Shown: piece by piece, positions 4,711 through 24,466 of the stretch
How positions within the stretch are numbered: the first letter of the stretch is position 1
Layout: every line of letters starts with the position of its first letter
Assembly (NCBI GenBank): GCA_947478455.1
Contig: CANJWR010000024.1
Coordinates: forward strand, 1 to 37,691
Direction: 5' to 3'
Source: Beijerinckiaceae bacterium
GTDB taxonomy: Bacteria; Pseudomonadota; Alphaproteobacteria; Rhizobiales; Beijerinckiaceae
DNA: 37,691 nt
Made by a program: the position numbers and the translations under genes
The notes under the pieces: generated by a model
What the model was told of the DNA's origin: nothing
What the model saw: the letters and a program-made list of their open reading frames with translations, nothing else
Database searches by the model: none

Positions 4711-6120
4711 TCAATGGCGGGGCGTCATCGTCACCGGAATGCCGCCGCGTGGACGCAGCGTGAGGCGACAGACCGGATCGACCTTGAAGCCCTCGACGAC
4801 ACGTATCCTGAATCGCTGGATGAGAATCGCAAGACAAAGAATCGATTCCGTGAGGCCGAAATTCATGCCTGCGCAAATGCGCGGGCCAATCGCGAACGGA
4901 ATGTAGCTGTAGGGTATGGGCCGCTGGTTGTTGAGAAAACGCTCTGGCATGAAACGGTCGGGCTGATCCCACAAATCCCTGGCGCGATGCAGCAACCACG
5001 GCACCACAAGCGCCAGCGCCGCCGGATCGACATCGATGTTGCCGATCCTGTCGGCCTCTTTCGCCTGACGGGCAAGAATCGGCACGGGCGGATAAAGGCG
5101 CAGCGTCTCCTCGATTACCGCCCGGCACCATTCGAGTTGCGGCACATCGTCGACCGTGGGGCGGCGTCCGCCGGTCACCCGGTCGATCTCCGCCAGCACC
5201 TGTTCCTCGACCCATGGGGCGTTGGAAAGAAGATACCAGGCCCATGTGAGGGTCGCGGCAGTCGTCTCGTGGCCGGCCATGAAGATGGTGGCGGCCTCGT
5301 TGCGCAGCGCGCTGAGATCTAGACCCAGTTCGGGATTGCGCGTCTGACGCTTCACCAGAAGCTGGATCATCGAATTGTCGTCGCCCTTGCCGGCCAGATG
5401 ATCGCTGACGACCTTGTCGATGACATTGTGAACGCGCTTCACGGACTTGCGCAGGCGCGGCCCGCGAATGACCGGCCAGCCTTCGTCCGCGCCAAGGAAA
5501 TAGCCGAAATTGAACGAGTCGATGAGGCTCTGGTATTTCGAGAACCCCTCGATCACCTCATTGGCCGCAGCCGCGCCGAGATCGTTGCCGAAAACCGTGC
5601 GGGCAATAATCTCCGCCGTCAGTTCCGCCATTTCGATCAGCACATTCACCGGCTGTCCGGCGGGGATATTTTCCCAACGGGCGACCATTTCGGCGGTCAC
5701 TGCCTCCATGGTCTTGCCGAAGGTCGGCACACGGTTCTTGTGCACGATGTCGGCCACGAGTGGCCGGCGCTTCTTCCACGTTTCGCCGTCGGAAATGAAC
5801 AGGCCGTCGCCAAGCAGGAATTCCAGCGCGCGCCGCATCTGCGGGCTCTTGCGCTCGAAATTCTCGTGGCGCGTGTGCATGACGTATTTCACCGATTCCG
5901 GCGAATTCACCAGCACGACCTGACGGCCAACGATCCGCGTCGTGCCAGTGGTCGACATGTAGTCGGACGCCGGCCAGATCGTCAGCAGATTGCGGCGCGC
6001 ATTGATGACCAGTTCATGCAGCGGCAAGAGCTTGGGCGGCGCAACAGGCCTTGCGGGCTCGAAGAAATCTGGCCCGCGCCGCTCGAGCACCTCTGGCTCA
6101 CTGAACCCGAAACTGAACAT
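4711..6120 (-). CDS. Cytochrome P450 monooxygenase
   Basis: All diagnostic P450 elements are present in this 469-residue protein. They are the I-helix oxygen-activation motif AGHETT (282-287), the K-helix ExxR (E338-R341), the meander/PERF-like region PERF (392-395), and the heme-ligand loop FAIGPRICAGMNF with the thiolate cysteine at 416. There is no N-terminal membrane anchor, so it should be soluble, and no fused reductase, so it needs separate redox partners that are not in this window. The overall type resembles bacterial P450s related to eukaryotic fatty-acid hydroxylases (long form, ETLRLYPPVP), which fits a lipid-chain substrate. It lies 116 bases downstream of the rkpH-like gene on the same strand. 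Hydroxylation of the lipid made by the neighbouring synthase is an attractive but unproven role. Confidence 0.92.
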   Translation of the reverse strand: MFSFGFSEPEVLERRGPDFFEPARPVAPPKLLPLHELVINARRNLLTIWPASDYMSTTGTTRIVGRQVVLVNSPESVKYVMHTRHENFERKSPQMRRALEFLLGDGLFISDGETWKKRRPLVADIVHKNRVPTFGKTMEAVTAEMVARWENIPAGQPVNVLIEMAELTAEIIARTVFGNDLGAAAANEVIEGFSKYQSLIDSFNFGYFLGADEGWPVIRGPRLRKSVKRVHNVIDKVVSDHLAGKGDDNSMIQLLVKRQTRNPELGLDLSALRNEAATIFMAGHETTAATLTWAWYLLSNAPWVEEQVLAEIDRVTGGRRPTVDDVPQLEWCRAVIEETLRLYPPVPILARQAKEADRIGNIDVDPAALALVVPWLLHRARDLWDQPDRFMPERFLNNQRPIPYSYIPFAIGPRICAGMNFGLTESILCLAILIQRFRIRVVEGFKVDPVCRLTLRPRGGIPVTMTPRH

Positions 6121-6236: not shown

Positions 6237-7055
6237 CTAAAGCGGCTTCTGGCCATCATAGCGCGAGACCCTGAAGCGCATGCCGTTCATCACCAGACGC
6301 CTGATCCAGGCAGGCGCGACAATCGAGCAACGGGCTGCGAAGAACAGGAAGTACGGGAAGCCGAACAGGCTCTTGTCGGCAGCCGCGCCGGCGATGATCT
6401 TGCGAGCGGCCTTTTCGGCGGAAATCTTGAACGGGTGCGAACCCAGATGGGCCTGCGTCATCCGCGATGTCACATAGCCGGGGCAGACGACGCTGATGCC
6501 CACGCCCTCACCCGCCAAGGCCTCCCGCATGGCCAGACCGTAGGAGATCAGTCCCGCCTTGCTGGCGCTGTAGGCAGGGGCGTCCGGCAGCGGCGCAAGG
6601 CCGGCCTGTGACGTCACCAGCACGATCTGGCCGGACTTCCTGGCCCGCATGTGCGGCAGAGCGGCATGCAGGGTCTCGATGGAGCCCAGCAGATTGGTGT
6701 CGATCAGATTTCGGGCGGCGGCGGCTGTTTCGATGTCTCCATCGGGCGTCCGCCCGTCCAGAATGCCCGCATTGGCGATGACGAGGTCGAGCGGCGCTGT
6801 TGCGGCAAAGGAATCGACGAAATCGCGCAGGGCCTGCACGTCGCGCACGTCGAAAAGGCCCTGCCGCACCGTCGCGCCCCTGCCCTGCGCGGCTGCGGCA
6901 ACTGCGCCCAGCCGTTCCGCATTGCGACCGACGAGGCCCAGCGCGATGCCGGGCCCGGCGAGTTCAAGCGCCAGCGCCTCGCCGATGCCGCTCGACGCGC
7001 CGGTGATGATGATGCCCTGAAACGCCAATGGCCGGTTCCGCTGCCTGAGAAACAC
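6237..7055 (-). CDS. rkpH: Short-chain dehydrogenase/reductase, RkpH-like
   Basis: This 272-residue protein is a classical SDR. It has the cofactor loop TGASSGIG (about 18-25), NAG (about 95-97), and the catalytic Ser (about 149), Tyr (162) and Lys (166) in YSASK. A hydrophobic C-terminal region (FGFPYFLFFAARCSIVAP) may attach it to the membrane, as in ketosphinganine-reductase-like SDRs. I place the start at GTG 7055 because AGGAAGG lies five bases upstream; a TTG at 7091 is possible but adds no domain. In Sinorhizobium, rkpH lies beside rkpG and rkpJ in the K-antigen region. Here it is divergent from the rkpJ-like gene (99-base spacer). The natural substrate would be the ketone made by the RkpG-like enzyme, which is inference. 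Arg in the NRxER segment after the second strand suggests NADP(H) preference. Confidence 0.85.
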   Translation of the reverse strand: MFLRQRNRPLAFQGIIITGASSGIGEALALELAGPGIALGLVGRNAERLGAVAAAAQGRGATVRQGLFDVRDVQALRDFVDSFAATAPLDLVIANAGILDGRTPDGDIETAAAARNLIDTNLLGSIETLHAALPHMRARKSGQIVLVTSQAGLAPLPDAPAYSASKAGLISYGLAMREALAGEGVGISVVCPGYVTSRMTQAHLGSHPFKISAEKAARKIIAGAAADKSLFGFPYFLFFAARCSIVAPAWIRRLVMNGMRFRVSRYDGQKPL

Positions 7056-7154
7056 AAATGCCTTCCTAGACCCAAGGGCGGGTGCGGCCAAGCGTGCTCG
7101 CAGGGCTCCCTATTCCGGCTTGCGGAACCTGCCGGGCAATCCTACAGAACGTCC

Positions 7155-8441
7155 ATGGCTGAAAAGCGTTCAATTCTGTTCCTGCAGGGACCACCTTCGG
7201 TTTTCTGGTCCGAACTCGCGGTCGCGCTCGAGACTGAGGGACACAAGACATTCCGCATCAACGTCTGCCCGGCCGATCTGCTTTTCTGGCGAAAGCGCGG
7301 CGCAGTGAACTATCGCGGCCGTTTCGCCGACTGGGGCAAATATCTCGAAGACTTTCTTCGCCGGAACTCCATCACGGATGTCGTCTACTACGCAGACCAG
7401 CAGGCCTATCATCGTGTCGCCGCAGATGTCGCGCGGCGGCTCGACATCAACGCTGTCGCCATTGAGTTCGGCTATCTGCGGCCCGACTGGCTGACTGTCG
7501 AGCGCAACGGAATGGGGGTCTATTCCCACTTCCCAAACGACCCGGCGCAGATTCATGCCATCGCCAAAAATGCGCCCGCGCCCGATCTGCCGGTGCGCTA
7601 TCCATATTCGTTCGGCGCGGAAGCGGTGGCGGAAGTCGTGTTCAATCTGTCGAATGTATTTTTGCGTCCGCTCTATCCGCATTTTAACGCCGACAAATAC
7701 TATCATCCGTTCGTGGACTATCTGAGCTGGGTTCCGCGCACGATGCGGCAATGGAAAGCGCAGCGCGATGCAGCCGGGGTGATCGCCGATTGCAAGGCGC
7801 AGAAGTGGCCGTTCTTCATGCTCGCCATGCAATTGCAGAGCGATTATCAAATCCGCCGTAATTCGCAGTACGGGCATTTGTCCGGCATGCTCGACGAGGT
7901 AATTGGTTCATTCGCCCGCCATGCGTCGCCCGATGCGAGGCTCGTGGCGAAACTGCATCCGCTCGACAATGGCCGCGAGAACTGGCCGCGCGTCCTGCGC
8001 GACGTTGCGCAGCGCCACGGAGTCGCGGATCGAGTGCTGATCATCGACGGCGGCGATGTGGCGGATATTCTGCCGCACGCCAAAGGCTGCGTGCTGGTGA
8101 ATTCGACGGTCGGTCTTTATGCGATCCGCGCGCGCTGTCCGACGAAAGTGCTTGGCATCGCGGTGTTCGACATTCCGGGCCTGACACATCAGGGAACGCT
8201 TGATGATTTCTGGCCTGCGCCCGAGCCCGTGGATGCAGAACTGGCGGAAGATTTCGTCAAGGCGCTCGCCGTCACCATTCAGGTGAAGGGCTCGTTCTAT
8301 GATCCTGCCGGACGCCATGCGGCGCAGGCCGAGATCGTGCGTCGCATCGCATCGGGCACGGTCAATGAGCCCGGCGCCTTCGTATCGCCTCCCCCGCGCA
8401 TTGAACATGCGCGCAGGATTGGTGTTCCGCTCGACGCATAG
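7155..8441 (+). CDS. rkpJ: Capsule polysaccharide biosynthesis/export protein, KpsS/RkpJ-like
   Basis: The 428-residue protein fits the capsule polysaccharide synthesis family that includes KpsS and RkpJ. It opens with SILFLQGPPSVFWSELA, continues with the family stretch GYLRPDWLTVERNGMG (about 120-135), and has a C-terminal KLHPLDNG...VLVNSTVGLYAI region, as in KpsC/KpsS-type retaining Kdo transferases. KpsS adds the first Kdo to the lyso-phosphatidylglycerol carrier of group 2 capsules. The start is ATG 7155; the frame is open further upstream, but that extension overlaps the divergent rkpH gene antisense and has no family similarity. No KpsC, KpsMT or KpsDE genes lie in this window. It is followed 53 bases later by the hydrolase gene on the same strand. 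Confidence 0.88.
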   Translation: MAEKRSILFLQGPPSVFWSELAVALETEGHKTFRINVCPADLLFWRKRGAVNYRGRFADWGKYLEDFLRRNSITDVVYYADQQAYHRVAADVARRLDINAVAIEFGYLRPDWLTVERNGMGVYSHFPNDPAQIHAIAKNAPAPDLPVRYPYSFGAEAVAEVVFNLSNVFLRPLYPHFNADKYYHPFVDYLSWVPRTMRQWKAQRDAAGVIADCKAQKWPFFMLAMQLQSDYQIRRNSQYGHLSGMLDEVIGSFARHASPDARLVAKLHPLDNGRENWPRVLRDVAQRHGVADRVLIIDGGDVADILPHAKGCVLVNSTVGLYAIRARCPTKVLGIAVFDIPGLTHQGTLDDFWPAPEPVDAELAEDFVKALAVTIQVKGSFYDPAGRHAAQAEIVRRIASGTVNEPGAFVSPPPRIEHARRIGVPLDA

Positions 8442-8494
8442 GCTTACATTTCCAGCGCAGCGGTCTATCTTCGACGCCGGAGGAGCTGCAGCAA

Positions 8495-9604
8495 ATGACC
8501 CGGCAAAACATTCTGACCATCGATCGACTGATCGATCATGTCTCGACCGTGCCGGCGATTGCGGGTCAGCATATCAATCTGTTCGTACGCGAACGCATCG
8601 ACGCAAATGTGCTGGAAAAGACGGACGGCAGGGCGACGCCCGGTTCTGTCGTCCTGTTCGTGCACGGCGGCTATTCGCCCTCGACGCTCGCCTTCGATGT
8701 GCAATATCGCAACTATAGCTGGATGGAGCATCTCGCCCGAGCGGGTTTCGACGTTTTCTGCATGGATATGACCGGCTACGGTCGCTCATCGCATCCGATG
8801 ATGGACGATCCGCGCAATCTCGATCCGAAGCAGCAGGGCCTGCTGATTCCGAGAAATCTTCACGAGCCCTGCGCAAATCCGTATCCGTTTCAACTGGTCA
8901 ACAGCGACTCGGAAACAGCAGACATCAAGGCCGTGGTTGATTTCATTTGTCGCTTGCGCGGCGTCGATCAGATCAATCTCATCGGGTGGTCGGGCGGCGG
9001 AATTCGAACCGGCACGTTCACAGTGCGGCATCCCGAACTCGTTGCGAAGCTCATCATTCTGGCGTCGTCGAATTACAGACGCGACAATCCCGATGTTGCG
9101 CCAGAACTGCCGAAGCCCGGCGCTCCGATGACGATGCAGACGCGCGAAGTCGGCATCGCCAAACGCTGGACGTCTCTGGCTGTTGCGGAGGATCAGATCG
9201 AGCCGGGATTTCCCGATCACATCTGGAACCTCAATGCCGATTGCGATCCGGTTGGCGCCACATGGGGACCGGGCGGGTTGCGGGCGCCGACGCGCACCTA
9301 CTGGGGCTGGAATGCAAAAGCGGCAGCCATCATCCACGCCCCGGTGCTGATCATGTCGGGCGAACAGGATGATTTATTCAACGCCAATGTGCAGCTTTTC
9401 GACGACCTCGGCTCATCGCAAAAGGCGTTTCTGGGCATCGCGCATGCGACGCATTTTGTAGCTTGGGAAAAGCAGCGGCGCGTGCTGCACGAAGCCTCGC
9501 TCGCATGGCTGCGCGACACTCGTTTGCCATGCGGCGATCGAGGTTGGTTTCGGGCGAACGGGGCTGGACAAATCGCACCGGCGCAAAGGTCGCAGCATCC
9601 TTGA
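8495..9604 (+). CDS. Alpha/beta hydrolase
   Basis: The protein has 369 residues. The alpha/beta-hydrolase fold is shown by the oxyanion-hole region LFVHGGY (54-60), the turn DMTGYGRSS (91-99), the nucleophile elbow GWSGGG with Ser166, an acid at Asp292/293 in SGEQDDLF, and His in AHATHF (317 or 320). A cap-like insertion lies between about 195 and 270. The last ~25 residues after WLRDTR are polar and outside the normal fold. GGAGGAG lies nine bases before the ATG. The substrate is unknown: an esterase or thioesterase acting on the acyl product of the neighbouring synthase, which lacks a thioesterase domain, is possible but not shown. It ends seven bases before the end of the convergent glycosyltransferase gene. 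Confidence 0.85.
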   Translation: MTRQNILTIDRLIDHVSTVPAIAGQHINLFVRERIDANVLEKTDGRATPGSVVLFVHGGYSPSTLAFDVQYRNYSWMEHLARAGFDVFCMDMTGYGRSSHPMMDDPRNLDPKQQGLLIPRNLHEPCANPYPFQLVNSDSETADIKAVVDFICRLRGVDQINLIGWSGGGIRTGTFTVRHPELVAKLIILASSNYRRDNPDVAPELPKPGAPMTMQTREVGIAKRWTSLAVAEDQIEPGFPDHIWNLNADCDPVGATWGPGGLRAPTRTYWGWNAKAAAIIHAPVLIMSGEQDDLFNANVQLFDDLGSSQKAFLGIAHATHFVAWEKQRRVLHEASLAWLRDTRLPCGDRGWFRANGAGQIAPAQRSQHP

Positions 9605-9610
9605 GGCGCT

Positions 9611-10906
9611 TTACTGGATCGAGAGAAGTATCTCTTCGACTTCCTTCATGTATTGGGGCCACGTCTTCGGCTTGAAGCTGGCGATCTTTTCGCGCAAGGC
9701 CAGATAGACCGCATTGTCGTCGATCATCGCCTCGATCTGGCGCAGCCACGCCGGCCCATCGGTCGGATCGAGAAAAATCCCGTACTCGCCGGCGGCCTCG
9801 CGATGCGCGGCAATATCCGACAGCACAGCAGGTGTGCCGGTTGTCAGCGCTTCTACGGGGGGCAAACCGAAACCTTCCGCAAAGGACGGCATCAAGAGCG
9901 CACGTGCACCAGACATTACGCTGCGCAGCGCGGGAGTCGAGAGTCCGCTCGCCAGGTGCACGTGATCGCGCAAGGCGTCGCACTTGCGCAGATAGTACAT
10001 GATGGGTTCCGACGACCAGCCGGGCGGGCCGGCAATGACCAGTACCGGAGCGTCCTTGCCGCGCTTGCGGACGAGTTCGCGCCACAACTGCAACAGCAGC
10101 ATGTGGTTCTTTCGCGGCTCTACAGCGCCGCAAATCACGAAATAGGGCCTCGCCGCAAGGTCGGGATCAGGCGCCATCGGGGTGATGAAGGCGTCGCTGA
10201 TCGGCAACGTCACCGGATAGATCGGGATTTCGCGAGCGCCGCGACGGCGCAGTTCTTCGAGTGTGGCCTGCTTGGTCGCCTCGCTGGGAACGATCAGCGC
10301 ATTCGCATAGCGGATCACGGCTTCCATAACCGCGTGATGCGAATTGTAGGTGCTAGGCGCGACTAACTCCGGCGTCTCCAGCGGAATAACGTCATGCACC
10401 ATGAAGACCGAGACGATGTCGGGGCGCTTGTCGAGCCAGGACAGAAAGCGCGGAACACTCAGGCCATAATGGCCGACGTTCAAGTAAATCGAATTGAGCG
10501 GCAAGCCGAGCGTCGTGCCGCCGAACGACCAGGGTCCGCGCGACAACAAATCGACAAAGCGAGCGGCACCACGAAGCTTCGTCATCATGCGCGACGACGG
10601 CCGCTTGTAGGCAAGCGGGCTGGACGGATCAGCCAGAAATCTCTTCAGCCGCGCGTAGGCAGGATCGTGATCGCGATCCATAGTCTCGCGCCAGAAAAAG
10701 TCGAGACGCTCCAGACCATGCACGAGCTTCTTGCGTCCGAACCAGCGCATGCCCCACATCATCGGCGCGATGCCGACAAAGTCCGTTGGCCAGTCGTGAT
10801 AGAGCGACGCCGCATAGCCGAAGTCGATGCGGTCGATGCCGCGCGGCGTTGATGCGAAAGGTCCGAGCATCAGCCGGACCATGTCGTAGGCAATCGGTCT
10901 CGTCAT
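9611..10906 (-). CDS. GT4-family glycosyltransferase (GT-B fold)
   Basis: This 431-residue protein shows a GT4 donor-binding domain: YFVICGAVEPRKNH (about 255-268), VLVIAGPPGW (288-297) and the EX7E motif FAEGFGLPPVE with E344 and E352, followed by SDIAAHREAAGEYGIFLDP. The N-terminal half has PRGIDRIDFGYA, seen in bacterial GT4 enzymes acting on exopolysaccharide or lipid-linked acceptors. It should be cytoplasmic and peripheral to the membrane. I chose ATG 10906; a longer frame would overlap the upstream gene without adding conserved sequence. It starts 34 bases after the rkpG-like stop and is probably cotranscribed with rkpA-rkpG. Its context suggests it adds a sugar to the lipid made by that pair, or works on the capsule. 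Donor and acceptor are unknown. Confidence 0.88.
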   Translation of the reverse strand: MTRPIAYDMVRLMLGPFASTPRGIDRIDFGYAASLYHDWPTDFVGIAPMMWGMRWFGRKKLVHGLERLDFFWRETMDRDHDPAYARLKRFLADPSSPLAYKRPSSRMMTKLRGAARFVDLLSRGPWSFGGTTLGLPLNSIYLNVGHYGLSVPRFLSWLDKRPDIVSVFMVHDVIPLETPELVAPSTYNSHHAVMEAVIRYANALIVPSEATKQATLEELRRRGAREIPIYPVTLPISDAFITPMAPDPDLAARPYFVICGAVEPRKNHMLLLQLWRELVRKRGKDAPVLVIAGPPGWSSEPIMYYLRKCDALRDHVHLASGLSTPALRSVMSGARALLMPSFAEGFGLPPVEALTTGTPAVLSDIAAHREAAGEYGIFLDPTDGPAWLRQIEAMIDDNAVYLALREKIASFKPKTWPQYMKEVEEILLSIQ

Positions 10907-10940
10907 TGAGCCCGCATACCCGAAAATTGGCGGCCGCGCA

Positions 10941-12308
10941 TCACCGCTTGAGGAGGCGGTTGGCAGTGCCGACCGCGAGTCCCGCAGCTTCCAGCGCTGA
11001 CAATTCTTCCTGCGTGGCCTGCACGGCTGCTTCAATCTGCTCCGGCGTATGACTGGCTGAGATGAAGAAGCGCAGACGCGCGGACTTTTCCGGCACGCCG
11101 GGCGGAATAATCGGGAAGGCGTTCACGCCGCGTTTCAGCAGCCGGTCCGCCAGAATGACGGTGCGCAGCGTATCGCCGACAATGATCGGCGTGACCGCAT
11201 AACCCCAACTGGAGCCTACATCGAGACCGGCGGCGCGGGCTTTATCGAGAAACAGCTTTCCGTTGGCCTGCAGCTTTGCGACGCGCTCCGGTTCGCGGCG
11301 CATGATATCGAGCGCAACGATAGACGCGACCGTTGCGGGGCCCGGCATTCCGACGCTGTACACAAGTCCGTTGGCTGCAAATTTCAGATAGTCAATCACC
11401 GCATGATTGCCGGCCACATAGCCGCCGCAACTCACCAGCGTCTTCGACAACGTACCGAGCCAGAGATCGACGCGGCGCGGATCGACGCCCTGCATTTCCC
11501 AGATCCCCTTGCCGGTCTTGCCGAGCACTCCGATTGAATGCGCCTCATCGACCAGCAGCCATGCGCCCCAACGCTCCTTGATCTCGACGAGACGCGCCAG
11601 ATCAGGGCCGTCGCCGTCCATCGAATAGAGACCCTCCGCGACGATGAGTACGCGCTCGAAGGAATCGCGCGAACTCTCAAGAATCGATTCGAGAACATCG
11701 AGGTCGTTGTGCGGGAATACACGTCGCGCTGAGCCCGAAAGCTGCGTGCCTACCATGATGCAATTGTGGATCAGCGCATCGTGGATAACGAGGTCTTTCG
11801 AACCTACGAGCGCCGCAATCGCCGTGACGGCCGTCGCGTGGCCGCTGACAAAAACGACCGAATCCTCGGCCTGATAGACGTCCGCGATGCTGCGCTCCAG
11901 ATCGCGATGGAACTTGCGCTCGCCCGCTGTTATGCGGCTGGCGGACACGCTGGTGCCCCATTCGGCAGCTGCTCGCGAAACAGCTTCGGTAATCTCCGGG
12001 TGACCGTTCAGACCGAGATAGTCATACGATGCAAAATTGACGACGTGCTGATTGCCGATCTGGCTTTCGGCGCCAGCCTTCGCGTCGTGCTGGCGATAAA
12101 AAGGATTGGAAATTCCCAGAACGTCGGCTGCGGCTCGCTGCGTCTTGAAAATCTGGAACGCCGGCAGGCTTTCAAAAGACGTGTCCCAGGTTTTCGTCGC
12201 AACAGGTTTCAGTGCCTTGGCAGGTTCCGACGTGCGGACATTCGCGCGCAAACTTTGCAGCAGCGCGGACTTGTCCGACGCCGATAGACGATCCGTGCGA
12301 CGGCTCAT
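10941..12308 (-). CDS. rkpG: PLP-dependent alpha-oxoamine synthase (AONS/SPT family), RkpG-like
   Basis: The protein has 455 residues. Alpha-oxoamine synthases condense an amino acid with an acyl thioester, losing CO2, to give an alpha-amino ketone; relatives are BioF, KBL, serine palmitoyltransferase and fungal Fum8. Visible elements are the NFASYDYLGL entry (91-100), the GTSVSASRITAGE stretch (118-130), the PLP-stacking region with VFVSGHATA, DEAHSIG with Asp254 and His257, and the Schiff-base lysine 289 in GTLSKTL. An extra N-terminal region of about 60 residues precedes the core and is absent from BioF. The ATG overlaps the stop of the synthase gene by four bases (ATGA, 12305-12308), with AGAGG five bases upstream, so translation is coupled and acyl transfer straight from the synthase ACP is likely. 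The amino-acid substrate cannot be read from the sequence. Confidence 0.9.
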   Translation of the reverse strand: MSRRTDRLSASDKSALLQSLRANVRTSEPAKALKPVATKTWDTSFESLPAFQIFKTQRAAADVLGISNPFYRQHDAKAGAESQIGNQHVVNFASYDYLGLNGHPEITEAVSRAAAEWGTSVSASRITAGERKFHRDLERSIADVYQAEDSVVFVSGHATAVTAIAALVGSKDLVIHDALIHNCIMVGTQLSGSARRVFPHNDLDVLESILESSRDSFERVLIVAEGLYSMDGDGPDLARLVEIKERWGAWLLVDEAHSIGVLGKTGKGIWEMQGVDPRRVDLWLGTLSKTLVSCGGYVAGNHAVIDYLKFAANGLVYSVGMPGPATVASIVALDIMRREPERVAKLQANGKLFLDKARAAGLDVGSSWGYAVTPIIVGDTLRTVILADRLLKRGVNAFPIIPPGVPEKSARLRFFISASHTPEQIEAAVQATQEELSALEAAGLAVGTANRLLKR

Positions 12309-15300
12309 TGCAGCCTCTTGACTGAACGACGCTGCTCGCCAATCGCTTCAGCAACCGCTGCAAGATTGTCGGCGTCAACATCGTCCGTGGTGTGCTTCTC
12401 GTACAGGCCGCGCTCGATTGTAGCTCCGCTGGCCTCGCCTGCCGCATCTGCGGTTGCATCGGCTGCGGGACGAATGTTGGCAATCATGCGGCCGGCAAGA
12501 TCGGTCAGGTTCGTAACCGATGTAATGGCGATCAGCGGCAGTTCAACGCCGAAGCGCTTCTCAATATCCATCCGGAGTTCGAGACCCATCAGCGAATCCA
12601 TGCCGAGTTCCGACAAAGGCCGATGAATATCGAGTTCTTCCGACGAGAGACGCAGGATGCGGCCCACTTCGACGGCAAGCAATTCTGCAACCTTCACGCG
12701 GGCCTCAACTTCGCTGAGGCCATCGATCAGTTTGAGAATGTCGACGCCCTCGCCGACATCGGCGTCGCCGCGGTTTCGGAAGACGCGCGCGAAGGCCGGC
12801 GTCTGCAACAGCTTCATGTCGCGCATGGCGCCGCCGGGATGAATGTCGGCGAAATAATGCGTAGCTTCGCCGTTTTGATTGACCAGCATGTGGCCCAGTT
12901 GGTCGAGCGCATCGCGCGAAGCAATACCCACGACGCCGGTGGCGCGCGCCAGTTTCTTGGCCGTTTCTCCATCGCGGGCGAGTACGCCCGCGTCGGAAAT
13001 TGCGCCCCACGCGACCGCGAGAGCCGGCAGGCCCTCCGAACGGCGCTTGCGGGCAAGGCCCTGCAGATAGCCGTTAGCCGCCACGTAAGCACTCTGGCCG
13101 GGACTGCCGATGAGCGTCGTAGCCGACGAATAGACGACAAAATAGTCGAGCTTCAGGTTCCGCGTGGCGCGATCAAGCTGGATCGCTCCGCCGACCTTGG
13201 GGGACAGAACCTTGTGGACCATGTCGTCATCGATGCCCGACATCAGGCGATCTTCCAGCACCATCGCGGTGTGGATGACCCCAGCCAGCTTGCCGTAGCG
13301 CGACAGGATGCGACCGATCATGGCGTCCACCGACCTGGTGTCGGTTACATCGACCTGTTCAATTTCGAGCCTTGCGCCCGTTGCGCGGATCGCGGCGGCC
13401 CGAACTTCGAGAGCCCCAGACAGCGCGCCCTTGCGGGACGCCACGATAATGTTCTGCGCGCCCTGCTCAGCCAGCCATGCGGCGGCTTCAAAGCCGAATC
13501 CACCAGTGCCGCCGACAACCAGATGCACGCCCGCGCCGGGCTTGAAACGCGCCTGACCATTGGCGAGTGGAACCGGACGACGCGGCGGCGCGATGAGAAT
13601 CTTGCCGACATGGCCGGCGCTCTGCATCAACCGGAACGCCGACGGCACGTCCTCGGCTTCAAATACACGGTACGGGAGCGGCGTGAGATTGCCGTCCTCA
13701 AAAGCGCGTTCCAGTTCGCGCATCAGGCGATCAGCCGTATCCGGGTCCGCCAGCAACAACTGATCGATATCGACGCCGAAATAGCTGAGGTTGCGACGGA
13801 AAGGCCGCAGGCCCATCCAGGTGTTCTCGACATAGTCGCGCTTGCCAAGTTCCACAAAGCGTCCGAACGGCTTCAGGCACTTGACGCTGGCCAGCATGGC
13901 CTCGCCGTAAAGCGAGTTCAGCACAATATCGACGCCGCCGAGTTCGCGTTTCACATCTTCGGCGAAAGTGAGTGAGCGGGAATCGAAAATCTTGTCCGCG
14001 CCGAACAGTTCGACCAGCGCGCGTTTGTCAGGCGACCCGACGGTCGCGACGATCTTGGCTCCCTTCCAGCGGGCAATCTGCATGGCAGCGAGGCCGACGC
14101 CACCGGCTGCACCGTGGATCAGCACCCATTCGCCGCGCTTGATGCGGGCGACCTCGATCAACGAATACCAGGCGGTGAGGAACGCCACCGGCACGGTTGC
14201 GGCCGCTTCAATCGGCAGACGATCCGGCACCGGCACGAAGACGCGACGATCCGCCGTCACATAGGTCGCAAAAGCCTTGGCCGCAAAGCCCATGACGCGC
14301 GAACCCGGCTGCAGGTCACGCACCTTTTCGCCGACGCGCACGACACGGCCCGAACATTCGAAGCCCAGAACGGCTCCCGCAAGGCCGGCATCCAGAACGT
14401 CGTCATCCAGCAGGCCCATCGACATCATGACATCGCGGAAGTTCAGACCGGCTGCGGCGACTTCCACTTCGACTTCGTTCGGGCCGGGCGCAACACGCTC
14501 GATGCCCGACCAGATGAATTGCGAAAGGGCCCCCTTGTGAGGAAGTTCCAGCACTGCGGCAGGCGCATGTTTGGTCTTGTCCGCATCAGCGCTGCGGCCG
14601 CGACCGACGCGATGAGCCCACAGACCAGACGCATCAACCAGCAGCTCTGCTTCAGCGCCCGGAGCATCAAGCAAACCGGTCAAGCGCTCCGCTGCCTCGG
14701 TGGCCGACAGGTCGCCGGCAATATCGATGAGCCGAATATCGACTTCCGGATATTCGTTCATCGCCACGCGGGCGAAAGACCAGATGGCTTCAGCGACAGG
14801 ATCAACCGCATGCGCGTTGGCCTCAAGCCCGCGCACCACAATCCATAGCGCAATATGATTTCCGCAGCCGCGCGCCGCCTCGACGATAGAGGTAATTTCC
14901 GCGATGCGATGTTCGAGACGGGACTGATCGTCTCCGTCGCGTTCGACGCCTGTAACATCGGCGACATCGATGCGTTTTCCGCGCGTTTCAGCGCCCAGAA
15001 TCGTCCGCCAGGCCTGGCGACGATTTTCATCCGGCGTCGCACCCGCATAGCTGCGCACAGAACGACCGGCGGCGCGCGCCTTCTGCAGCAACTGCGTAAC
15101 GAACGCATTTTCCGAAGGCGTGCCATTTGCGGCAATCACCAGCGGAGGATGCTCACCGACCGTTGTGTCAGCTGCCTGAGCAGGCGTTGCGACGAGAATT
15201 GTGCCGACGCCGTCGCCGCCCTCAATGGTCTGAATATCGCGATAGCCGGCGCTGACGAGAGCGCGGCGCGTATCCTCAATTCCCGGCAGACGACCGACCG

Positions 15301-18300
15301 GGAAATGCGGGTCCAGCGTTCGTGAGAACCAGCCTTCCGTCAGACCCAGCAGAACGTCGAACACCGGATCGGCCGGCGGCTGCAGAACGACAAGCGCCGC
15401 ATTCGGCGCAAGACGAGCCGAGACTGCGCTGCCGAATGCGGCGTCGCTGCCAAACAGAGAGTCCGAAGTCATTGCCAGCGCGAGATTGAAGACCGGTCCT
15501 GCCGCAGCATCGGGGCCTAATTCTAGGAATTCAACGCCATTATCAGCGCCGATGCGCGCCGCAATATGATCGAGGCGCTTGTGATCGGCGCTTGCGACCG
15601 TAACCTTGACGCGACGATCATGAATGAACGGCCGCAACATGCGGATAATGCCGAGGCAGCCGGGTTCGAGCACGACCACGTTAACCGGATCGGGCTTCAT
15701 GGCGGTTTCGGTCGTCTCAATAATCGAAGCCGCGCGTTCAAGCAGCGGTTCGAACAATAGTGTCGAAGTCTCGAACTGTTCGATCAATTGCTGGCGATAG
15801 GTTGGTGCGTGTCCGGTCGCAATCGCCTTGTCGAGATGCGACAGGACTTTCGCCGCCAACACAAGCTCGACGCTTGAAGCCGGATATTCAGCCGCAAAGG
15901 TCGCGAGAATCGTCGCCGGATCAGGCAAACCACTATCAGCCTCAAGCAGCCAACTATCACCATTTTCCGTCGCCAAACCGGCGCTGGAAAGGCAAACCAG
16001 CAGTGTATTTGTGAGCGGCGCCATGGTCGAAGCAATGGAGCCCTTTTCGACGCTCGCCTCGACTGTTGCGCCTGCAATCCCGATGCGATTGACGAGCACG
16101 TCATGTGCGAGTGAGCGCGCAAAGGCCTCAAGCAACAGCCAGCTGTCGGGGCGCTCGCCCGGCTTCTTGCTGCTCAGCGCCTTTCGGGCGACACTGCGTC
16201 CGTCGAACACGCGATCGAGACGCTCGATGCGTGTGCGCTCGACATGGAAATAGAGCTGATCCGCCGTGCTGCGCGACAGCACGACAGAACGGAACAGACC
16301 GCCGGCCAGCGTGGCGACTATCTGGTCGTCAGCATCATAGAGCGCTATCGACACGGACATTGAATCGTCCGTGCTGCGTTCGAGCACCAGCAATGCGCGG
16401 GAAATCTCGGCGCTGTCGCGATAGACGCGCAACTGGCCGAAGCGAACCGGCAAATAGGTTTTCTTGATGCCCTTCTTGACCGTCATCGTCTGGAAGAGCG
16501 GATGGAAGGCGGCGTCCAGTCCGACAGGAGACAGAACCTGCGCACGGTCGAACAGGCCAGTGGGCATGTCGGTCGGCGCAAAATCAGCGTAGATCACCTT
16601 GTCATTGTAGCGCATGCCGCGCACGCGGCGGAACGACGGGCCATATTCCATGCCGGTTTCGCGGGCGCGGGAATAAATGTCGTCTGCAGTTGCGCCGTCG
16701 AACGGCTTGCCGGGCGGCGCTACGAGATCGTGGACTGCGCCGACAACTTGCACAATGCGGCCACGCGCGTGCAGCGACCACTCATCGCCGGCCAGACGCG
16801 GACGGCTCCAGACCTCGACAAGCTGGGTGTCGTCATGCAGACGCACGGAGATTTCGCGCATGGCGTCGCGCAGCAGAACGAGCGGCGCGAGAATATCGAA
16901 ATCCTCAATGCCGATAGGCCCTTCCGGGAAGGTCTCGCGTGCGACAGCAAGAAGCATTTCGGCAAGGCCTGCGCCCGGCACGACAACTTCGCCGTCGACC
17001 TTGTGGTCGACAAGGTAGGGAACAATATCTGTATCGAGCAGCGTGCGCCATTCGGGCGAACCTTGCGACAAACGCGCGCCAATCAACGGATGTCGCGACT
17101 GGCCGCCGTACAGATTCAGAGCTTCGTTGGTCTCAACCAGATTGTAGGTCTTGTGCTGCCACGGATAGGCCGGCAGCCCTACGCGGCCAAGCGGAGCCGC
17201 GCCGAAAATCTTTTCTTCATCGAGACGCGCGCCCCGGACCAGAGCGCGACCGACGATGGCGCGGATTGGATCGAACCCGGCAGCATCCTTCTCGTCGAGC
17301 GTCTGGATGTAGTCGCCGCGAATGCCGGCGTCTTTCATCGTGTCGTTCAGATTGGCGCGCAGAATCGGGCGAGCGCCAATTTCGATGAAAAGCGTTGCGC
17401 CCTTCGCGGTTGCGGCTTCGATCGCCGAGCGGAATTTTACCTGCTCGCGAACGTTGCGCCACCAATATTCGCCATCGAGCAATTTGCCGTCGAGCACGTC
17501 ACCGGTGACGCTCGAAATAAAGTCGATGGACGACTTCTTCGGCTTCAGACCTGCGAGCGACTGCAACAGTGCTTCGTGCAGCGGATCGAGCAGCGGGCTA
17601 TGGAACGGATAGTCGAGATCAAGGACGCGGATCGCAATACGACGCTTGCGGCCCGCCTTTGCGGCCTCCTGGATCGATGCTTCAGGTCCGGAAAGAGTAA
17701 CCGATGAGGCGCTGTTTTCGGCAGCAATTTCCACATCGCCGAGAGCAAGGTCACGCAGGAACTGGCGCGTATCGGAGACGCCACTGTTGGTGGCGGCCAT
17801 CTTGCCAAGGCCGCGCACCTTTTCCTGCTGCTCGCTGCGGTTGACGATCAGACGAACGGCATCGGCGAGCGTTAACGCGCCGGCCGCTTCCGCCGCCGCA
17901 ACTTCACCGACGCTGTGACCAAACACCATTGCGGGCTTGAGTCCGTATTCGGCGAGCGCTGCTGTGACAGACGACTGGATCGCAAACAGAAGCGGCTGCG
18001 CCACCGACGTCTTAGGCAGGCGCTCGGCCAGTTCCGGATCGTTGATCGCCTCAACGAGCGACCAACCGGCGAGCGGCTTGAAGATGGCGTCGATCTGCTG
18101 CATCCGCTTGCGAAAAGCGGGATTGTTGGCATAGGCGGCGCGACCCATTCCGGGCCATTGTGCGCCGTTGCCAGAAAACACGAACGCAACTACGGGCGCG
18201 GCCGAGGGCGCAGTGCCGGAGGTTACGCTTCTGGTGTCTTTCGTATCGGCGAAAGCACGCAGTTCCTCGATCATCGCTCCCGCATCGGCTAGCGGCATGG

Positions 18301-19801
18301 CAAGACGATGGGACAGACGCTCGCGACGGTGGGCGGACGCGCCAGCCACGACTGCTGCTGTCACATCGCCAGCCTCGATGAGGTCTGCGTAACGGGTGGC
18401 TGTTTCGGCCAGCGCTTCGCGCGTCTGAGCGGAAAGAACCAGGAATTCAGGTTCGGATTTTCCTGCGCGGCTGGCGACAGGAAGCTCGGACGAATCGGGT
18501 TCGCGCATGATCACATGCGCGTTGGTGCCGCCGAAGCCGAAAGAGGAGACACCGCAATGCAGCGTCACGCCATGGCTGGCCAGTTGGATCGGCTCGACAG
18601 CCGCTTCGAGATTGAGCGCCGCAAAATCAATCAGCGGGTTGGGTTCGCCCAGATGGAGCGAGCGCGGGAGAACGCGATGCTCCATGGCAAGAATCGCTTT
18701 GAATGCACCAGCGAGACCGGATGCCGGCTCCAGATGGCCGATGTTCGACTTGACCGAGCCCATTGGCAGCGGCGACTGGCGCTTCTGGCCGAGCGCCTGA
18801 CCGATCGCCTGAGCCTCGGCGGGATCGCCAACGCGTGTGCCAGTGCCGTGAGCTTCCACGAAAGCCAGCTTGCCCGGGTTGATGCCCGAATCGCCATAAA
18901 CACGCTCAAGCAAAGCCCTCTGGCCATCGGCGGAGGGGAGCGAAATGCCGGAAGTGCGACCGTCCGAATTGATCCCCGAGGCCAGCACCATCGCGCGCGG
19001 CGCAAGATTGCGCTGCTTTGCAATGTCGCCACGCATAATCAGGAACGCTACAGCGCCCTCGGCGCGCACGTAACCGTCGCCCTGTGCGGAGAAAGGCCGG
19101 CACAAGCCTGTCGGGGACAACATCGAGGCGCGCGAGAATCCGATGAACGAGCCCGGCGATAGAAGGAGATTGACGCCTGCTACGACCGCTATCTCGACAC
19201 GACCGCTTTCGACGGCCGCCATGGCTTCGGAAAAGGCCACCAGAGACGACGAACAGGCTGTGTCGACGGTAAAGCTCGGTCCACGCCAATCGAAAACATA
19301 GGAAATCCGGTTCGACACGATGGACAATGTATTGCCCGTCATGAAGTGGCTTTCGATCGCCGCCGGATCGGTCATATGGAGGTTGCCGTAGTCGAGGCTC
19401 GACGCCCCGACGTAAACGCCAACTTCCTTGCCGGCGAGGGACGACGGCGCAATCCCGGCGTCCTCAAGAGCTTCCCAGACTACTTCGAGCAGCAAGCGCT
19501 GCTGGGGATCGATCTGCCGCGCTTCGCGGGGCGATATCCCGAAAACCGTGGGATCGAAAGCGAAAGGCTCGCTCAGATAACCGCCGTTGAAAGTGTAACT
19601 GAAGCCCGGCTCGGTTGCGCGCGGGTGCTGGTATTTCTCGGCGCGCCAGCGCCCGGCCGGCAACGCGCCAACCGTGCAGCGCCCGGATTCCAGGACATTC
19701 CAAAAGGCGGATTCGTTGGGTGCGCCGGGCAATCTGCACGCTGCGCCAACTACCGCGACGGGGGCCGATCCGACCCGGAAAATGCTTACCGGTTCATTCA
19801 T
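12305..19801 (-). CDS. rkpA: Highly reducing iterative type I polyketide/fatty-acid synthase, RkpA-like
   Basis: The 2,498-residue enzyme has one complete module. KS is at about 14-430, with Cys183 in DTACSSS, His318 in VEAHGTGT and His356 in NIGHLE. AT is at about 537-840, with Ser630 in GHSVGE and YPFHS at 731-735. DH is at about 903-1180, with His933 in DHKVDGEVVVPG and Asp1096 in GLDAAF. An unassigned stretch of about 550 residues contains a degenerate methyltransferase-like part (1375-1540). ER follows at about 1755-2070 (LNFRD, AAGGVG 1898-1903). KR is at about 2091-2320, with GGTGGFG, Ser2225/2226, Tyr2239 and Asn2243. ACP is at about 2365-2440, with the phosphopantetheine Ser2403 in GMDSL, then a ~58-residue tail. 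There is no thioesterase, consistent with release by the coupled RkpG-like enzyme. All reductive domains look intact, so a saturated or nearly saturated chain is expected. Length and order match RkpA, known from rhizobial K-antigen synthesis. The ribosome-binding site is weak. Confidence 0.93.
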   Translation of the reverse strand: MNEPVSIFRVGSAPVAVVGAACRLPGAPNESAFWNVLESGRCTVGALPAGRWRAEKYQHPRATEPGFSYTFNGGYLSEPFAFDPTVFGISPREARQIDPQQRLLLEVVWEALEDAGIAPSSLAGKEVGVYVGASSLDYGNLHMTDPAAIESHFMTGNTLSIVSNRISYVFDWRGPSFTVDTACSSSLVAFSEAMAAVESGRVEIAVVAGVNLLLSPGSFIGFSRASMLSPTGLCRPFSAQGDGYVRAEGAVAFLIMRGDIAKQRNLAPRAMVLASGINSDGRTSGISLPSADGQRALLERVYGDSGINPGKLAFVEAHGTGTRVGDPAEAQAIGQALGQKRQSPLPMGSVKSNIGHLEPASGLAGAFKAILAMEHRVLPRSLHLGEPNPLIDFAALNLEAAVEPIQLASHGVTLHCGVSSFGFGGTNAHVIMREPDSSELPVASRAGKSEPEFLVLSAQTREALAETATRYADLIEAGDVTAAVVAGASAHRRERLSHRLAMPLADAGAMIEELRAFADTKDTRSVTSGTAPSAAPVVAFVFSGNGAQWPGMGRAAYANNPAFRKRMQQIDAIFKPLAGWSLVEAINDPELAERLPKTSVAQPLLFAIQSSVTAALAEYGLKPAMVFGHSVGEVAAAEAAGALTLADAVRLIVNRSEQQEKVRGLGKMAATNSGVSDTRQFLRDLALGDVEIAAENSASSVTLSGPEASIQEAAKAGRKRRIAIRVLDLDYPFHSPLLDPLHEALLQSLAGLKPKKSSIDFISSVTGDVLDGKLLDGEYWWRNVREQVKFRSAIEAATAKGATLFIEIGARPILRANLNDTMKDAGIRGDYIQTLDEKDAAGFDPIRAIVGRALVRGARLDEEKIFGAAPLGRVGLPAYPWQHKTYNLVETNEALNLYGGQSRHPLIGARLSQGSPEWRTLLDTDIVPYLVDHKVDGEVVVPGAGLAEMLLAVARETFPEGPIGIEDFDILAPLVLLRDAMREISVRLHDDTQLVEVWSRPRLAGDEWSLHARGRIVQVVGAVHDLVAPPGKPFDGATADDIYSRARETGMEYGPSFRRVRGMRYNDKVIYADFAPTDMPTGLFDRAQVLSPVGLDAAFHPLFQTMTVKKGIKKTYLPVRFGQLRVYRDSAEISRALLVLERSTDDSMSVSIALYDADDQIVATLAGGLFRSVVLSRSTADQLYFHVERTRIERLDRVFDGRSVARKALSSKKPGERPDSWLLLEAFARSLAHDVLVNRIGIAGATVEASVEKGSIASTMAPLTNTLLVCLSSAGLATENGDSWLLEADSGLPDPATILATFAAEYPASSVELVLAAKVLSHLDKAIATGHAPTYRQQLIEQFETSTLLFEPLLERAASIIETTETAMKPDPVNVVVLEPGCLGIIRMLRPFIHDRRVKVTVASADHKRLDHIAARIGADNGVEFLELGPDAAAGPVFNLALAMTSDSLFGSDAAFGSAVSARLAPNAALVVLQPPADPVFDVLLGLTEGWFSRTLDPHFPVGRLPGIEDTRRALVSAGYRDIQTIEGGDGVGTILVATPAQAADTTVGEHPPLVIAANGTPSENAFVTQLLQKARAAGRSVRSYAGATPDENRRQAWRTILGAETRGKRIDVADVTGVERDGDDQSRLEHRIAEITSIVEAARGCGNHIALWIVVRGLEANAHAVDPVAEAIWSFARVAMNEYPEVDIRLIDIAGDLSATEAAERLTGLLDAPGAEAELLVDASGLWAHRVGRGRSADADKTKHAPAAVLELPHKGALSQFIWSGIERVAPGPNEVEVEVAAAGLNFRDVMMSMGLLDDDVLDAGLAGAVLGFECSGRVVRVGEKVRDLQPGSRVMGFAAKAFATYVTADRRVFVPVPDRLPIEAAATVPVAFLTAWYSLIEVARIKRGEWVLIHGAAGGVGLAAMQIARWKGAKIVATVGSPDKRALVELFGADKIFDSRSLTFAEDVKRELGGVDIVLNSLYGEAMLASVKCLKPFGRFVELGKRDYVENTWMGLRPFRRNLSYFGVDIDQLLLADPDTADRLMRELERAFEDGNLTPLPYRVFEAEDVPSAFRLMQSAGHVGKILIAPPRRPVPLANGQARFKPGAGVHLVVGGTGGFGFEAAAWLAEQGAQNIIVASRKGALSGALEVRAAAIRATGARLEIEQVDVTDTRSVDAMIGRILSRYGKLAGVIHTAMVLEDRLMSGIDDDMVHKVLSPKVGGAIQLDRATRNLKLDYFVVYSSATTLIGSPGQSAYVAANGYLQGLARKRRSEGLPALAVAWGAISDAGVLARDGETAKKLARATGVVGIASRDALDQLGHMLVNQNGEATHYFADIHPGGAMRDMKLLQTPAFARVFRNRGDADVGEGVDILKLIDGLSEVEARVKVAELLAVEVGRILRLSSEELDIHRPLSELGMDSLMGLELRMDIEKRFGVELPLIAITSVTNLTDLAGRMIANIRPAADATADAAGEASGATIERGLYEKHTTDDVDADNLAAVAEAIGEQRRSVKRLQ

Positions 19802-24310: not shown

Positions 24311-24329
24311 TTGTGAGTCGTCAACAATC

Positions 24330-24346
24330 GAAAGGAGGTGATCCAG
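24330..24346 (+). promoter_or_regulatory. Full-length anti-16S-tail Shine-Dalgarno sequence
   Basis: The 17 bases GAAAGGAGGTGATCCAG are the exact complement of the conserved 3' end of bacterial 16S rRNA, far longer than the usual 4-6 base pairing. GGAGG lies seven bases before the GTG at 24346, the ideal spacing, so it can act as a very strong ribosome-binding site. Confidence 0.7.
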
Positions 24347-24423
24347 TGTCTCATTGTCATATGCCGTGGTCTTCGGTGACTGGGTTCTGGGCTCTCGTTC
24401 GTGTGGAGTCCCGCCCCGCGTGA
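24346..24423 (+). CDS. 25-codon small ORF in an independent transcription unit
   Basis: GTG at 24346 follows an extended ribosome-binding site, and the frame runs 25 codons to TGA, giving a peptide that begins MSHCHMPWSSVTGFW and ends RVESRPA. It contains two tryptophans, one cysteine, two histidines and several Val/Arg residues, and no clear membrane helix. It has its own promoter and a strong intrinsic terminator 43 bases after the stop, so the unit is a stand-alone gene. I cannot assign a function. It may be a genuine micropeptide, or the peptide may be incidental and the transcript act as an RNA that binds 30S subunits. It is divergent from gltX (203-base spacer). Confidence 0.55.
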   Translation: MSHCHMPWSSVTGFWALVRVESRPA

Positions 24424-24466
24424 GCGGCGCTTCGTAATTCCAGTTTCGGCCTCGGCCAGACAATGG

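What the first reader, a model, noticed from the sequence alone, without database searches (positions are those of the whole stretch)
6237..19801. Iterative PKS coupled to an alpha-oxoamine synthase: a probable sphingoid-like lipid pathway
The sequence shows a full reducing module (KS-AT-DH-ER-KR-ACP) with no thioesterase, directly followed by an alpha-oxoamine synthase (lysine 289), then a GT4 enzyme, with an SDR and a KpsS-like protein nearby. Established knowledge: rkpA/rkpG/rkpH/rkpJ serve K-antigen synthesis in Sinorhizobium, and the same PKS plus oxoamine-synthase logic makes fumonisin in fungi (Fum1/Fum8). Inference: the synthase-bound chain is off-loaded onto an amino acid, giving a 3-keto amino lipid that RkpH reduces and the GT glycosylates. 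As far as I know, the lipid made by the rkp pathway has not been structurally resolved.
Basis: partly seen in the sequence, partly recalled or inferred. Interest (0 to 1): 0.8.

Follow-up and report, generated by a model that had tools for sequence, protein, structure and literature searches.

The report
Sphingolipid-type pathway wired to capsule genes
This bacterium carries genes that probably build a sphingolipid-like fat on a polyketide assembly line, and gene neighbours in many other bacteria suggest that such fats serve to anchor a sugar capsule to the cell surface.

Summary
At 12305-19801 (-) lies a one-module KS-AT-DH-ER-KR-ACP synthase with intact catalytic motifs and no thioesterase hit. 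The proposed chemistry is already shown in a relative: PfSgaA (PKS) and PfSgaB (AOS with serine palmitoyltransferase activity) make C24-C28 sphinganines (PMC12134224). So the chemistry is known.

What I add is context. Of 80 related loci, 48 have the PKS beside the AOS, and 31 of these also show KpsS/KpsC-type or capsule-export genes (36 if LTA-synthase-type genes count), against 3 of 32 without that PKS. The gene at the RkpI position is of the LTA-synthase superfamily. The window's own genome has a KpsF-KpsEMET export locus on another contig. Best reading: the pathway makes a sphingoid lipid that primes or anchors an ABC-exported polysaccharide. I found no paper saying this; the anchor role is inferred. 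Against it: no KpsC and no clustered LTA synthase here; a sister with 93% AOS identity lacks the exporter homologue; half of the AOS genomes lack KpsS.

The parts
12305..19801 (-). one-module reducing type I PKS (KS-AT-DH-[degenerate methyltransferase-like linker]-ER-KR-ACP), RkpA/SgaA type, no thioesterase hit
10941..12308 (-). alpha-oxoamine synthase (PLP; K289, H181, D254, H257, R413), RkpG/SgaB type; predicted serine palmitoyltransferase-like condensation
9611..10906 (-). GT4 glycosyltransferase, third gene of the PKS-AOS-GT4 set; a 46% paralogue lies in the capsule-export locus on contig C23
8495..9604 (+). alpha/beta hydrolase; kept in G035 beside KpsS, no room for it between GT4 and KpsS in G004; role unclear
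7155..8441 (+). KpsS-like protein (PF05159), predicted beta-Kdo transferase; the only PF05159 match found in this genome assembly
6237..7091 (-). SDR (TGASSGIG, YxxxK), predicted 3-ketosphinganine reductase, SgaC-like; start codon uncertain
4711..6120 (-). cytochrome P450 next to the SDR in the window and both sister species, and within about 6 kb of PKS or AOS in four more loci; predicted to hydroxylate the chain (a guess)

Best explanation
The window encodes a PKS-derived sphingoid-base pathway of the SgaABC/RkpAGH kind. The one-module PKS builds a saturated, unbranched long chain on its own ACP. The AOS releases it by decarboxylative condensation with an amino acid, most likely serine, giving a 3-ketosphinganine. 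The SDR reduces this to a sphinganine-like base, and the P450 may hydroxylate it. The base then serves as the lipid acceptor (anchor) of an ABC-transporter-dependent surface polysaccharide: the GT4 and the KpsS-like beta-Kdo transferase put the first sugars on it, and an export locus elsewhere in the genome (contig C23: KpsF, KpsE, KpsM, KpsE, KpsT, second GT4) carries the chain out. In many relatives (21 of 48 PKS-linked loci) an LTA-synthase-type enzyme in the cluster could first add phosphoglycerol, giving phosphoglycerol-sphinganine, a mimic of the (lyso)phosphatidylglycerol on which E. coli KpsS and KpsC act. SHOWN: gene content, motifs, conserved linkage, the export locus. SHOWN IN A RELATIVE (published): AOS activity with serine; sphinganines; phosphoglycerol sphingolipids proposed there from mass. 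INFERRED: product of this window, serine here, SDR and P450 roles, KpsS acceptor, capsule anchoring. Rough step odds: sphingoid chemistry 0.85; capsule/surface-glycan link 0.6; phosphoglycerol-sphinganine as KpsS acceptor in relatives 0.4.
For: Chemistry: PKS and AOS motifs; nearest solved AOS sequences are serine palmitoyltransferases; the AOS sits in a 13-row clade, all PKS-linked (SH-aLRT 100), and the PKS label needs 5 changes on the 117-row tree against a mean of 37.5 shuffled (near-copies help such clustering); PKS and AOS are one annotated protein in Planktothrix; PfSgaB/PfSgaAB experiments. In 387 alphaproteobacterial genomes 14 have an RkpG-type AOS and 24 have PF05159; 7 have both, all 7 within 8 kb of each other (p 4e-6, or 3e-5 without the window's own genome). 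Of 46 genomes with only weaker AOS matches, 4 have PF05159, none of them near the AOS; of 327 without a match, 13 do. The gene at the RkpI position is PF00884 in L031 (as is its homologue in L030, which has ES and GDH motifs), and the L030 protein is homologous to the Caballeronia cluster protein. Own-genome KpsF and KpsE-KpsM-KpsE-KpsT-GT4 locus; the KpsE-M-E-T order is that seen behind PKS-AOS-GT4 in G001. In L049 (Pseudomonas plasmid) PKS-AOS is followed, on the other strand, by PhyH, KpsC-type, GNAT, LTA-synthase-type, SDR and KpsS-type genes; the SDR is the fifth gene after the AOS, the same locus-tag spacing as PfSgaC to PfSgaB.
Against: The genome shows one PF05159 protein and no KpsC (assembly 92% complete). 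No LTA-synthase-type gene lies in the window; the four PF00884 proteins elsewhere are distant, 22-28%. Sister G004, with the same cluster at 93% AOS identity, has no KpsM homologue at E 1e-30. 7 of 14 genomes with the AOS have no PF05159 at E 1e-20. 12 of 48 PKS-linked loci show no capsule, LTA-type or export gene in view; 5 of those 12 are at least 15 kb, among them L063, whose AOS is the closest named one at 66%. The loci are related, so the Fisher p values overstate independence; the E 1e-186 cut for the AOS was chosen after seeing the gap; PKS adjacency was not checked in the 387-genome test, where at most four AOS candidates a genome were scored. KpsS scores below its NCBIfam cut-off and no solved structure matched by sequence. 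The published study treats the sphinganines as secondary metabolites, and its main text has no occurrence of capsul-, rkpA or wcbR.
Confidence: 0.58

Rival explanations
1. The pathway makes a free or glycosylated sphinganine-like secondary metabolite or membrane lipid; the capsule genes beside it in relatives are unrelated passengers of surface-polysaccharide islands.
For: PfSgaAB makes free sphinganines with an effect on a nematode host. The window has no KpsC, no LTA-synthase-type gene and no exporter beside the cluster. G004 lacks the exporter homologue; L063 shows PKS-AOS-SDR without capsule genes in 21 kb.
Against: Linkage to KpsS-type, LTA-synthase-type or export genes recurs across alpha-, beta- and gammaproteobacteria and in Desulfomicrobium. 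rkpA mutations are listed as affecting the Kdo capsule of S. meliloti (passage).
Confidence: 0.25
2. The product is a glycosphingoid outer-membrane lipid: GT4 and a single KpsS-like step decorate the base with a sugar and one Kdo, with no polymer on it.
For: KpsS without KpsC would add one Kdo (KpsS adds the first residue, KpsC extends it: passage in PMC7694667). GT4 follows the AOS at 34 bases; no KpsC was found.
Against: The genome does have a KpsF and KpsEMET export locus with a GT4 paralogue.
Confidence: 0.25
3. The AOS uses glycine, alanine or another amino acid, giving a 1-deoxy base or amino ketone rather than a sphingoid base.
For: The AOS is no equivalog of known serine palmitoyltransferases: 281 bits against a cut-off of 640; the best model is BioF, also below its cut-off.
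Against: [quoted passage not shown] The Pseudomonas AOS in L049 has a similar profile pattern and is 49-52% identical to the window's; the PfSgaB sequence itself was not compared.
Confidence: 0.12
4. The AOS is a housekeeping biotin or 2-amino-3-ketobutyrate enzyme that happens to lie beside a PKS.
For: Best NCBIfam score is BioF (342.8 bits).
Against: Below that cut-off of 426; ATGA overlap with the PKS; PKS-linked clade; fused to a PKS in Planktothrix.
Confidence: 0.02

Closest known systems
PfSgaA/PfSgaB/PfSgaC of Pseudomonas fluorescens MYb115 (PMC12134224)
   Same: one-module iterative PKS, AOS, SDR; 3-ketosphinganine route
   Different: window adds GT4, P450 and alpha/beta hydrolase; no LTA-synthase-type gene beside it. 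The text I saw gives no capsule context; that its cluster has the L049 layout is my inference from locus-tag spacing
rkp-1 region (rkpA, G, H, I, J) of Sinorhizobium meliloti
   Same: PKS, AOS, SDR and KpsS-type gene (order by name from PMC7902896, passage); rkpA listed among genes affecting K polysaccharide (PMC5539429, passage)
   Different: PKS about 37% and AOS 47% identical in L031; SDR of another subgroup; KpsS divergently placed; GT4 and no PF00884 gene
Burkholderiales PKS-AOS loci (wcbR-type name from PMC3908369 passages)
   Same: PKS plus AOS in L050, L051, L092, L103, L105, L106, L109; export genes in view in L050 and L103, KpsS-type in L051
   Different: all seven carry an LpxC-like and an LTA-synthase-type gene, five a GNAT gene, which the window lacks
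fungal Fum1/Fum8 and sphingofungin-type PKS plus AOS
   Same: chemical logic of a PKS chain off-loaded by an AOS (recalled)
   Different: fungal system; the window's methyltransferase-like stretch has no SAM glycine motif
canonical bacterial serine palmitoyltransferase
   Same: AOS family, active-site residues; best solved-sequence hits
   Different: acyl donor predicted to be the PKS ACP; scores far below SPT equivalog cut-offs

Membership tests
PKS-AOS sphinganine pathway (SgaAB kind) | single-module KS-AT-DH-ER-KR-ACP PKS without thioesterase | tested here: met
PKS-AOS sphinganine pathway (SgaAB kind) | AOS with PLP lysine adjacent to the PKS and in a PKS-linked clade | tested here: met
   the PfSgaB sequence itself was not available
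PKS-AOS sphinganine pathway (SgaAB kind) | SDR related to the ketosphinganine reductase of the cluster | tested here: inconclusive
   41-42% to SDRs of Pseudomonas L049 and Paraburkholderia L051 clusters; same best NCBIfam model NF005437 as L049's, below its cut-off; PfSgaC itself not compared
PKS-AOS sphinganine pathway (SgaAB kind) | serine condensation and sphinganine product | not testable with these tools
   shown only for PfSgaB/MYb115
rkp-1 K-polysaccharide locus | order PKS-AOS-SDR-LTA-synthase-type (PF00884)-KpsS | tested here: not met
   seen in L031, L047, L048, L075, L076, L082, L088, L090, L093, L102 (PF00884 by Pfam checked only for L031 of these); the window lacks that gene and has another order
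ABC-transporter-dependent capsule (group 2 kind) | KpsS and KpsC beta-Kdo transferases | tested here: not met
   one KpsS-like protein only, no KpsC in a 92% complete assembly
ABC-transporter-dependent capsule (group 2 kind) | KpsM, KpsT, KpsE and outer-membrane export protein in the genome | tested here: met
   contig C23 KpsE/M/E/T; Wza-type proteins on C271 and C12
serine palmitoyltransferase (NCBIfam equivalogs) | score above the curated cut-off | tested here: not met
   281 bits against 640, 269 against 500, 186 against 670

The most novel reading that the evidence does not exclude
In rhizobia, Burkholderiales, some Pseudomonas and others, the ABC-exported capsule is built on a PKS-derived sphingolipid (phosphoglycerol-sphinganine made by PKS, AOS, SDR and an LTA-synthase-type phosphoglycerol transferase) instead of (lyso)phosphatidylglycerol, with KpsS putting the first Kdo on its glycerol. 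The window's lineage is a variant in which a GT4 replaces the phosphoglycerol step. The 'phospholipid anchor' reported for S. meliloti could then be a sphingolipid: phosphoglycerol plus C28 sphinganine is 595.458 Da, 1.03 Da from phosphoglycerol plus hydroxy-octacosanoate (594.426). That the 2005 paper assigned hydroxy-octacosanoate is my recall; only its title was seen.
Probability: 0.33. Interest if true: 0.85.

Novelty: new variant of a known kind. Interest (0 to 1): 0.6.

Why it matters
Some bacterial capsule loci carry a fatty-acid-synthase-like PKS and an AOS whose product I did not find explained. If they make the capsule's lipid anchor, a gap in rhizobial K-antigen and related capsule biology closes, sphingolipids become structural parts of many capsules, and the reported Pseudomonas phosphoglycerol sphingolipids become likely capsule precursors. 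Each step can be tested with deletions and mass spectrometry.

Tried and rejected
A thioesterase domain in the PKS was looked for and not found. A PKS-AOS fusion in G046, suggested by a 2716-codon open frame, was rejected: PKS and AOS matches there end and start at 8085 and 8121 and were labelled as separate open frames. A working C-methyltransferase between DH and ER was rejected: no SAM-binding glycine motif (GxGxG) in the window or the rows printed from 60 aligned synthases; the fold was not tested. The KpsS-like protein had no sequence match among solved structures at E 0.01. Housekeeping BioF/Kbl was rejected.

Papers. Ten searches showed me no paper that links a PKS-derived sphingoid base to a capsule anchor. 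They cover open-access papers only, and long listings were cut: 20 of 129, 12 of 4,046, 30 of 162, 12 of 78, 12 of 92, 12 of 15; some searches were listed in full. What I saw of each paper: PMC12134224 outline with abstract, sections 7, 8, 9, 15 and passages; PMC3908369 outline with abstract, and passages; PMC7694667, PMC11041684, PMC12220298, PMC13410964, PMC5539429, PMC9386255, PMC7902896 passages only; all others listings only. Kiss 1997, Fraysse 2005, Muller 2009 and Willis 2013 were not held; anything from them beyond titles in reference lists is recall.

Counting choices. The PKS-adjacent label asked for at least 34% identity, 150 bits and the same strand, less than about 3 kb upstream. 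L068, L084 and L130 (short contigs with PKS pieces) fell into the 'without' group; its 3 positives are L095, L130 and L133. Neighbour labels are best blastp hits at E 1e-10 to a small query set, so they are not curated annotations and single components of other export systems may be among them. The tree left out nine duplicate loci and any AOS piece under 280 residues, and its 'PKS' label (68 rows) added L068, L084, L130 and earlier loci to the 48; a first try failed on a file-reading slip. The 60 synthases are those with an open frame of at least 2000 residues. In the 387-genome test the classes are AOS at E 1e-186 or better (14), weaker matches down to 1e-90 (46) and none (327).

Full report
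OBSERVATION. The PKS (12305-19801, minus) has KS, AT, DH, ER, KR and ACP domains in order with no thioesterase hit, and each catalytic residue I checked is present: KS C183, H318, H356; AT S630; DH H933 and D1096; KR Y2239; ACP GMDSL. The KS, AT, ER, KR and ACP motifs are also the common variants among 60 related synthases (top seven variants per motif printed, DH histidine not covered). The AT motifs (GHSVG, YPFH) point to malonyl-CoA (motif reading recalled). The AOS overlaps the PKS by four bases and its PLP lysine is residue 289. H181, D254, H257, K289 and R413 are invariant in 16 aligned AOS sequences. The GT4 begins 34 bases after the AOS, taking the first methionine of its frame as start. 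The divergent KpsS-like gene starts near 7155; the ORF antisense to it (7170-7877) has no family hit.

THE SAME CLUSTER IN SISTERS. In G004 (AOS 93%) the order PKS-AOS-GT4-KpsS-SDR-P450 is whole, between CreA on one side and the FAD, DUF599 and DUF218 genes on the other, as in the window, but without the hydrolase. In G035 (88%) two contigs show PKS(end)-AOS-GT4 and P450-SDR-KpsS-hydrolase. Two other species of the genus (G001, G007) have PKS-AOS-GT4 beside a Wza-type gene, in G001 with KpsE, KpsM, KpsE and KpsT further on, but no PF05159 protein.

CHEMISTRY. The closest solved AOS sequences are serine palmitoyltransferases, although the protein scores below the curated cut-off of all 12 NCBIfam models it hits. 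The tree puts it in a 13-row clade, all PKS-linked. The decisive outside fact is PMC12134224 (sections read): PfSgaB condenses acyl-CoA with L-serine, sgaA and sgaB deletions lose C24-C28 sphinganines, and species 154 Da heavier are proposed to be phosphoglycerol sphingolipids. 154.003 Da is what a glycerophosphoryl group adds.

CAPSULE CONTEXT. Eleven plasmid regions were fetched; eight carry annotation. Of those eight, six (L030, L031, L049, L050, L051, L054) show genes annotated as capsule or polysaccharide biosynthesis/export near the AOS, four an 'LTA synthase family' gene, and L049 also KpsF, kdsB and kdsA; Planktothrix (L052) and Streptomyces (L053) show none, and L054 has no PKS beside its AOS. 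Neighbours were labelled by blastp at E 1e-10 against a fixed query set and counted: of 48 with the PKS adjacent, 20 had a PF05159-like gene, 21 an LTA-synthase-like gene, 21 an SDR, 19 an exporter part and 3 the P450. 31 had PF05159 or exporter, 36 with LTA-type added; five (L081, L092, L105, L106, L109) count only through the LTA-type gene. Of the 32 others, 3 did. 12 of 48 have none in view; 7 of these loci are under 15 kb, but L063 (the closest named AOS, 66%), L069, L086, L089 and L096 are longer. The loci are related, so p values are only a guide.

A genome-level test in 387 alphaproteobacterial genomes agrees in part: 14 with the AOS (E 1e-186 or better, a cut chosen after seeing the gap to 1e-145), 24 with PF05159, 7 with both, and in all 7 the two lie within 8 kb. 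As a control, of 46 genomes with weaker AOS matches 4 have PF05159, on other contigs or at least 47 kb away, and of 327 without a match 13 do (counts). Half of the AOS genomes have no PF05159 protein, which is against a strict KpsS requirement. In the window's relatives 5 of 9 genomes with the AOS at about E 1e-150 or better have PF05159 and 6 of the other 52 do.

THE RKPI POSITION. In rhizobial loci the gene between SDR and KpsS is LTA-synthase-like; Pfam gives PF00884 for the ones tested, the L030 homologue and the larger piece of L031. The L030 protein is homologous to the Caballeronia LTA-synthase-family protein (31%, E 1e-49); both have ES and GDH motifs and hydrophobic stretches near the N-terminus. 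By order (rkpA to rkpJ; passage in PMC7902896) this would be RkpI; I did not see the RkpI sequence itself. A likely phosphoglycerol transferase beside a sphinganine pathway and KpsS suggests phosphoglycerol-sphinganine as a stand-in for the (lyso)phosphatidylglycerol on which KpsS and KpsC work in E. coli (passages in PMC7694667 and PMC11041684). In the Pseudomonas plasmid L049 the SDR is the fifth gene after the AOS, matching the tag spacing of PfSgaC (RS19775) and PfSgaB (RS19800); I infer, without having seen it, that MYb115 has the same capsule-type layout.

OWN GENOME. One PF05159 protein, the one in the window. Contig C23 carries KpsF (TIGR00393 above cut-off), KpsE, KpsM, KpsE, KpsT, a GlcNAc-2-epimerase-family gene, a 46% paralogue of the window's GT4, an NAD-epimerase-family gene and two GT9 genes; Wza-type proteins are on C271 and C12. 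So export and a Kdo-pathway isomerase exist, but not next to the window. Within the genus (37 genomes) a KpsM homologue at E 1e-30 is in 4 of 6 PKS-AOS genomes and 4 of 31 others (Fisher p 0.013). G004, the closest sister, is one of the two without, which weakens the model for exactly this lineage.

WHAT REMAINS OPEN. KpsC and a clustered LTA-synthase-type gene are missing here, so either a GT4-primed variant of the anchor or a short Kdo-glycosphingoid lipid fits. The P450 lies beside the SDR in both sisters (90%, 86%) and near PKS or AOS in L030, L066, L069 and L086 (42-62%); its solved relatives include P450 BM3, a fatty-acid hydroxylase (recalled). Chain hydroxylation is a guess.

NOVELTY. 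PKS-AOS sphinganine synthesis: published in 2025. Capsule anchoring by its product: not found in my ten searches of open-access papers (listed, with their cut lists, under Tried and rejected), and the main text of PMC12134224 has no occurrence of capsul-, rkpA or wcbR. I therefore call the window a new variant of a known kind and put the bold reading in the section on the most novel reading.

Noticed in passing
window 27547-31038 (+): One 1163-aa protein joins an MFS transporter, an acyltransferase and an AMP-binding domain (a layout like a fused LplT-Aas lysophospholipid recycler; name recalled), followed by a TetR gene.
   Followed up: no
window 24322-24491 (+): Rfam CC2171 sRNA ('caulobacter sRNA'), 84.5 bits, between a glutamyl-tRNA-synthetase-like and a TctC-domain ORF.
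   Followed up: no
L052 7581-15179 and L053 8311-13134: PKS and AOS in a single annotated protein in Planktothrix agardhii; in Streptomyces anthocyanicus a shorter protein with KS-AT-type similarity ends in an AOS. Supports AOS as a PKS release domain.
   Followed up: partly
L050 12904-13830; also L051, L092, L103, L105, L106, L109, L110: Burkholderiales clusters put an LpxC-like deacetylase between PKS and AOS (PF03331 by Pfam for L050); its substrate here is unknown.
   Followed up: no
window 12305-19801, residues about 1180-1750: Long DH-ER linker with a Rossmann-like, methyltransferase-like stretch lacking the SAM glycine motif in the window and the aligned relatives printed: probably a structural relic.
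   Followed up: partly
L031 16374-17902: The RkpI-position gene of S. meliloti Ak57 matches in two pieces, while L048 matches in one; the record's annotation leaves the stretch blank.
   Followed up: no
L018-L022 / L041-L045: A second AOS group (41-45%) in the same genus has no full RkpA-type PKS beside it but ketosynthase-like and SDR genes within the fetched stretches.
   Followed up: no
L154 (contig C227 of the own genome): A second KpsE/KpsM-like pair with a gene 50% identical to a Shinella capsule-cluster protein annotated as methyltransferase; no Pfam hit for that piece.
   Followed up: no
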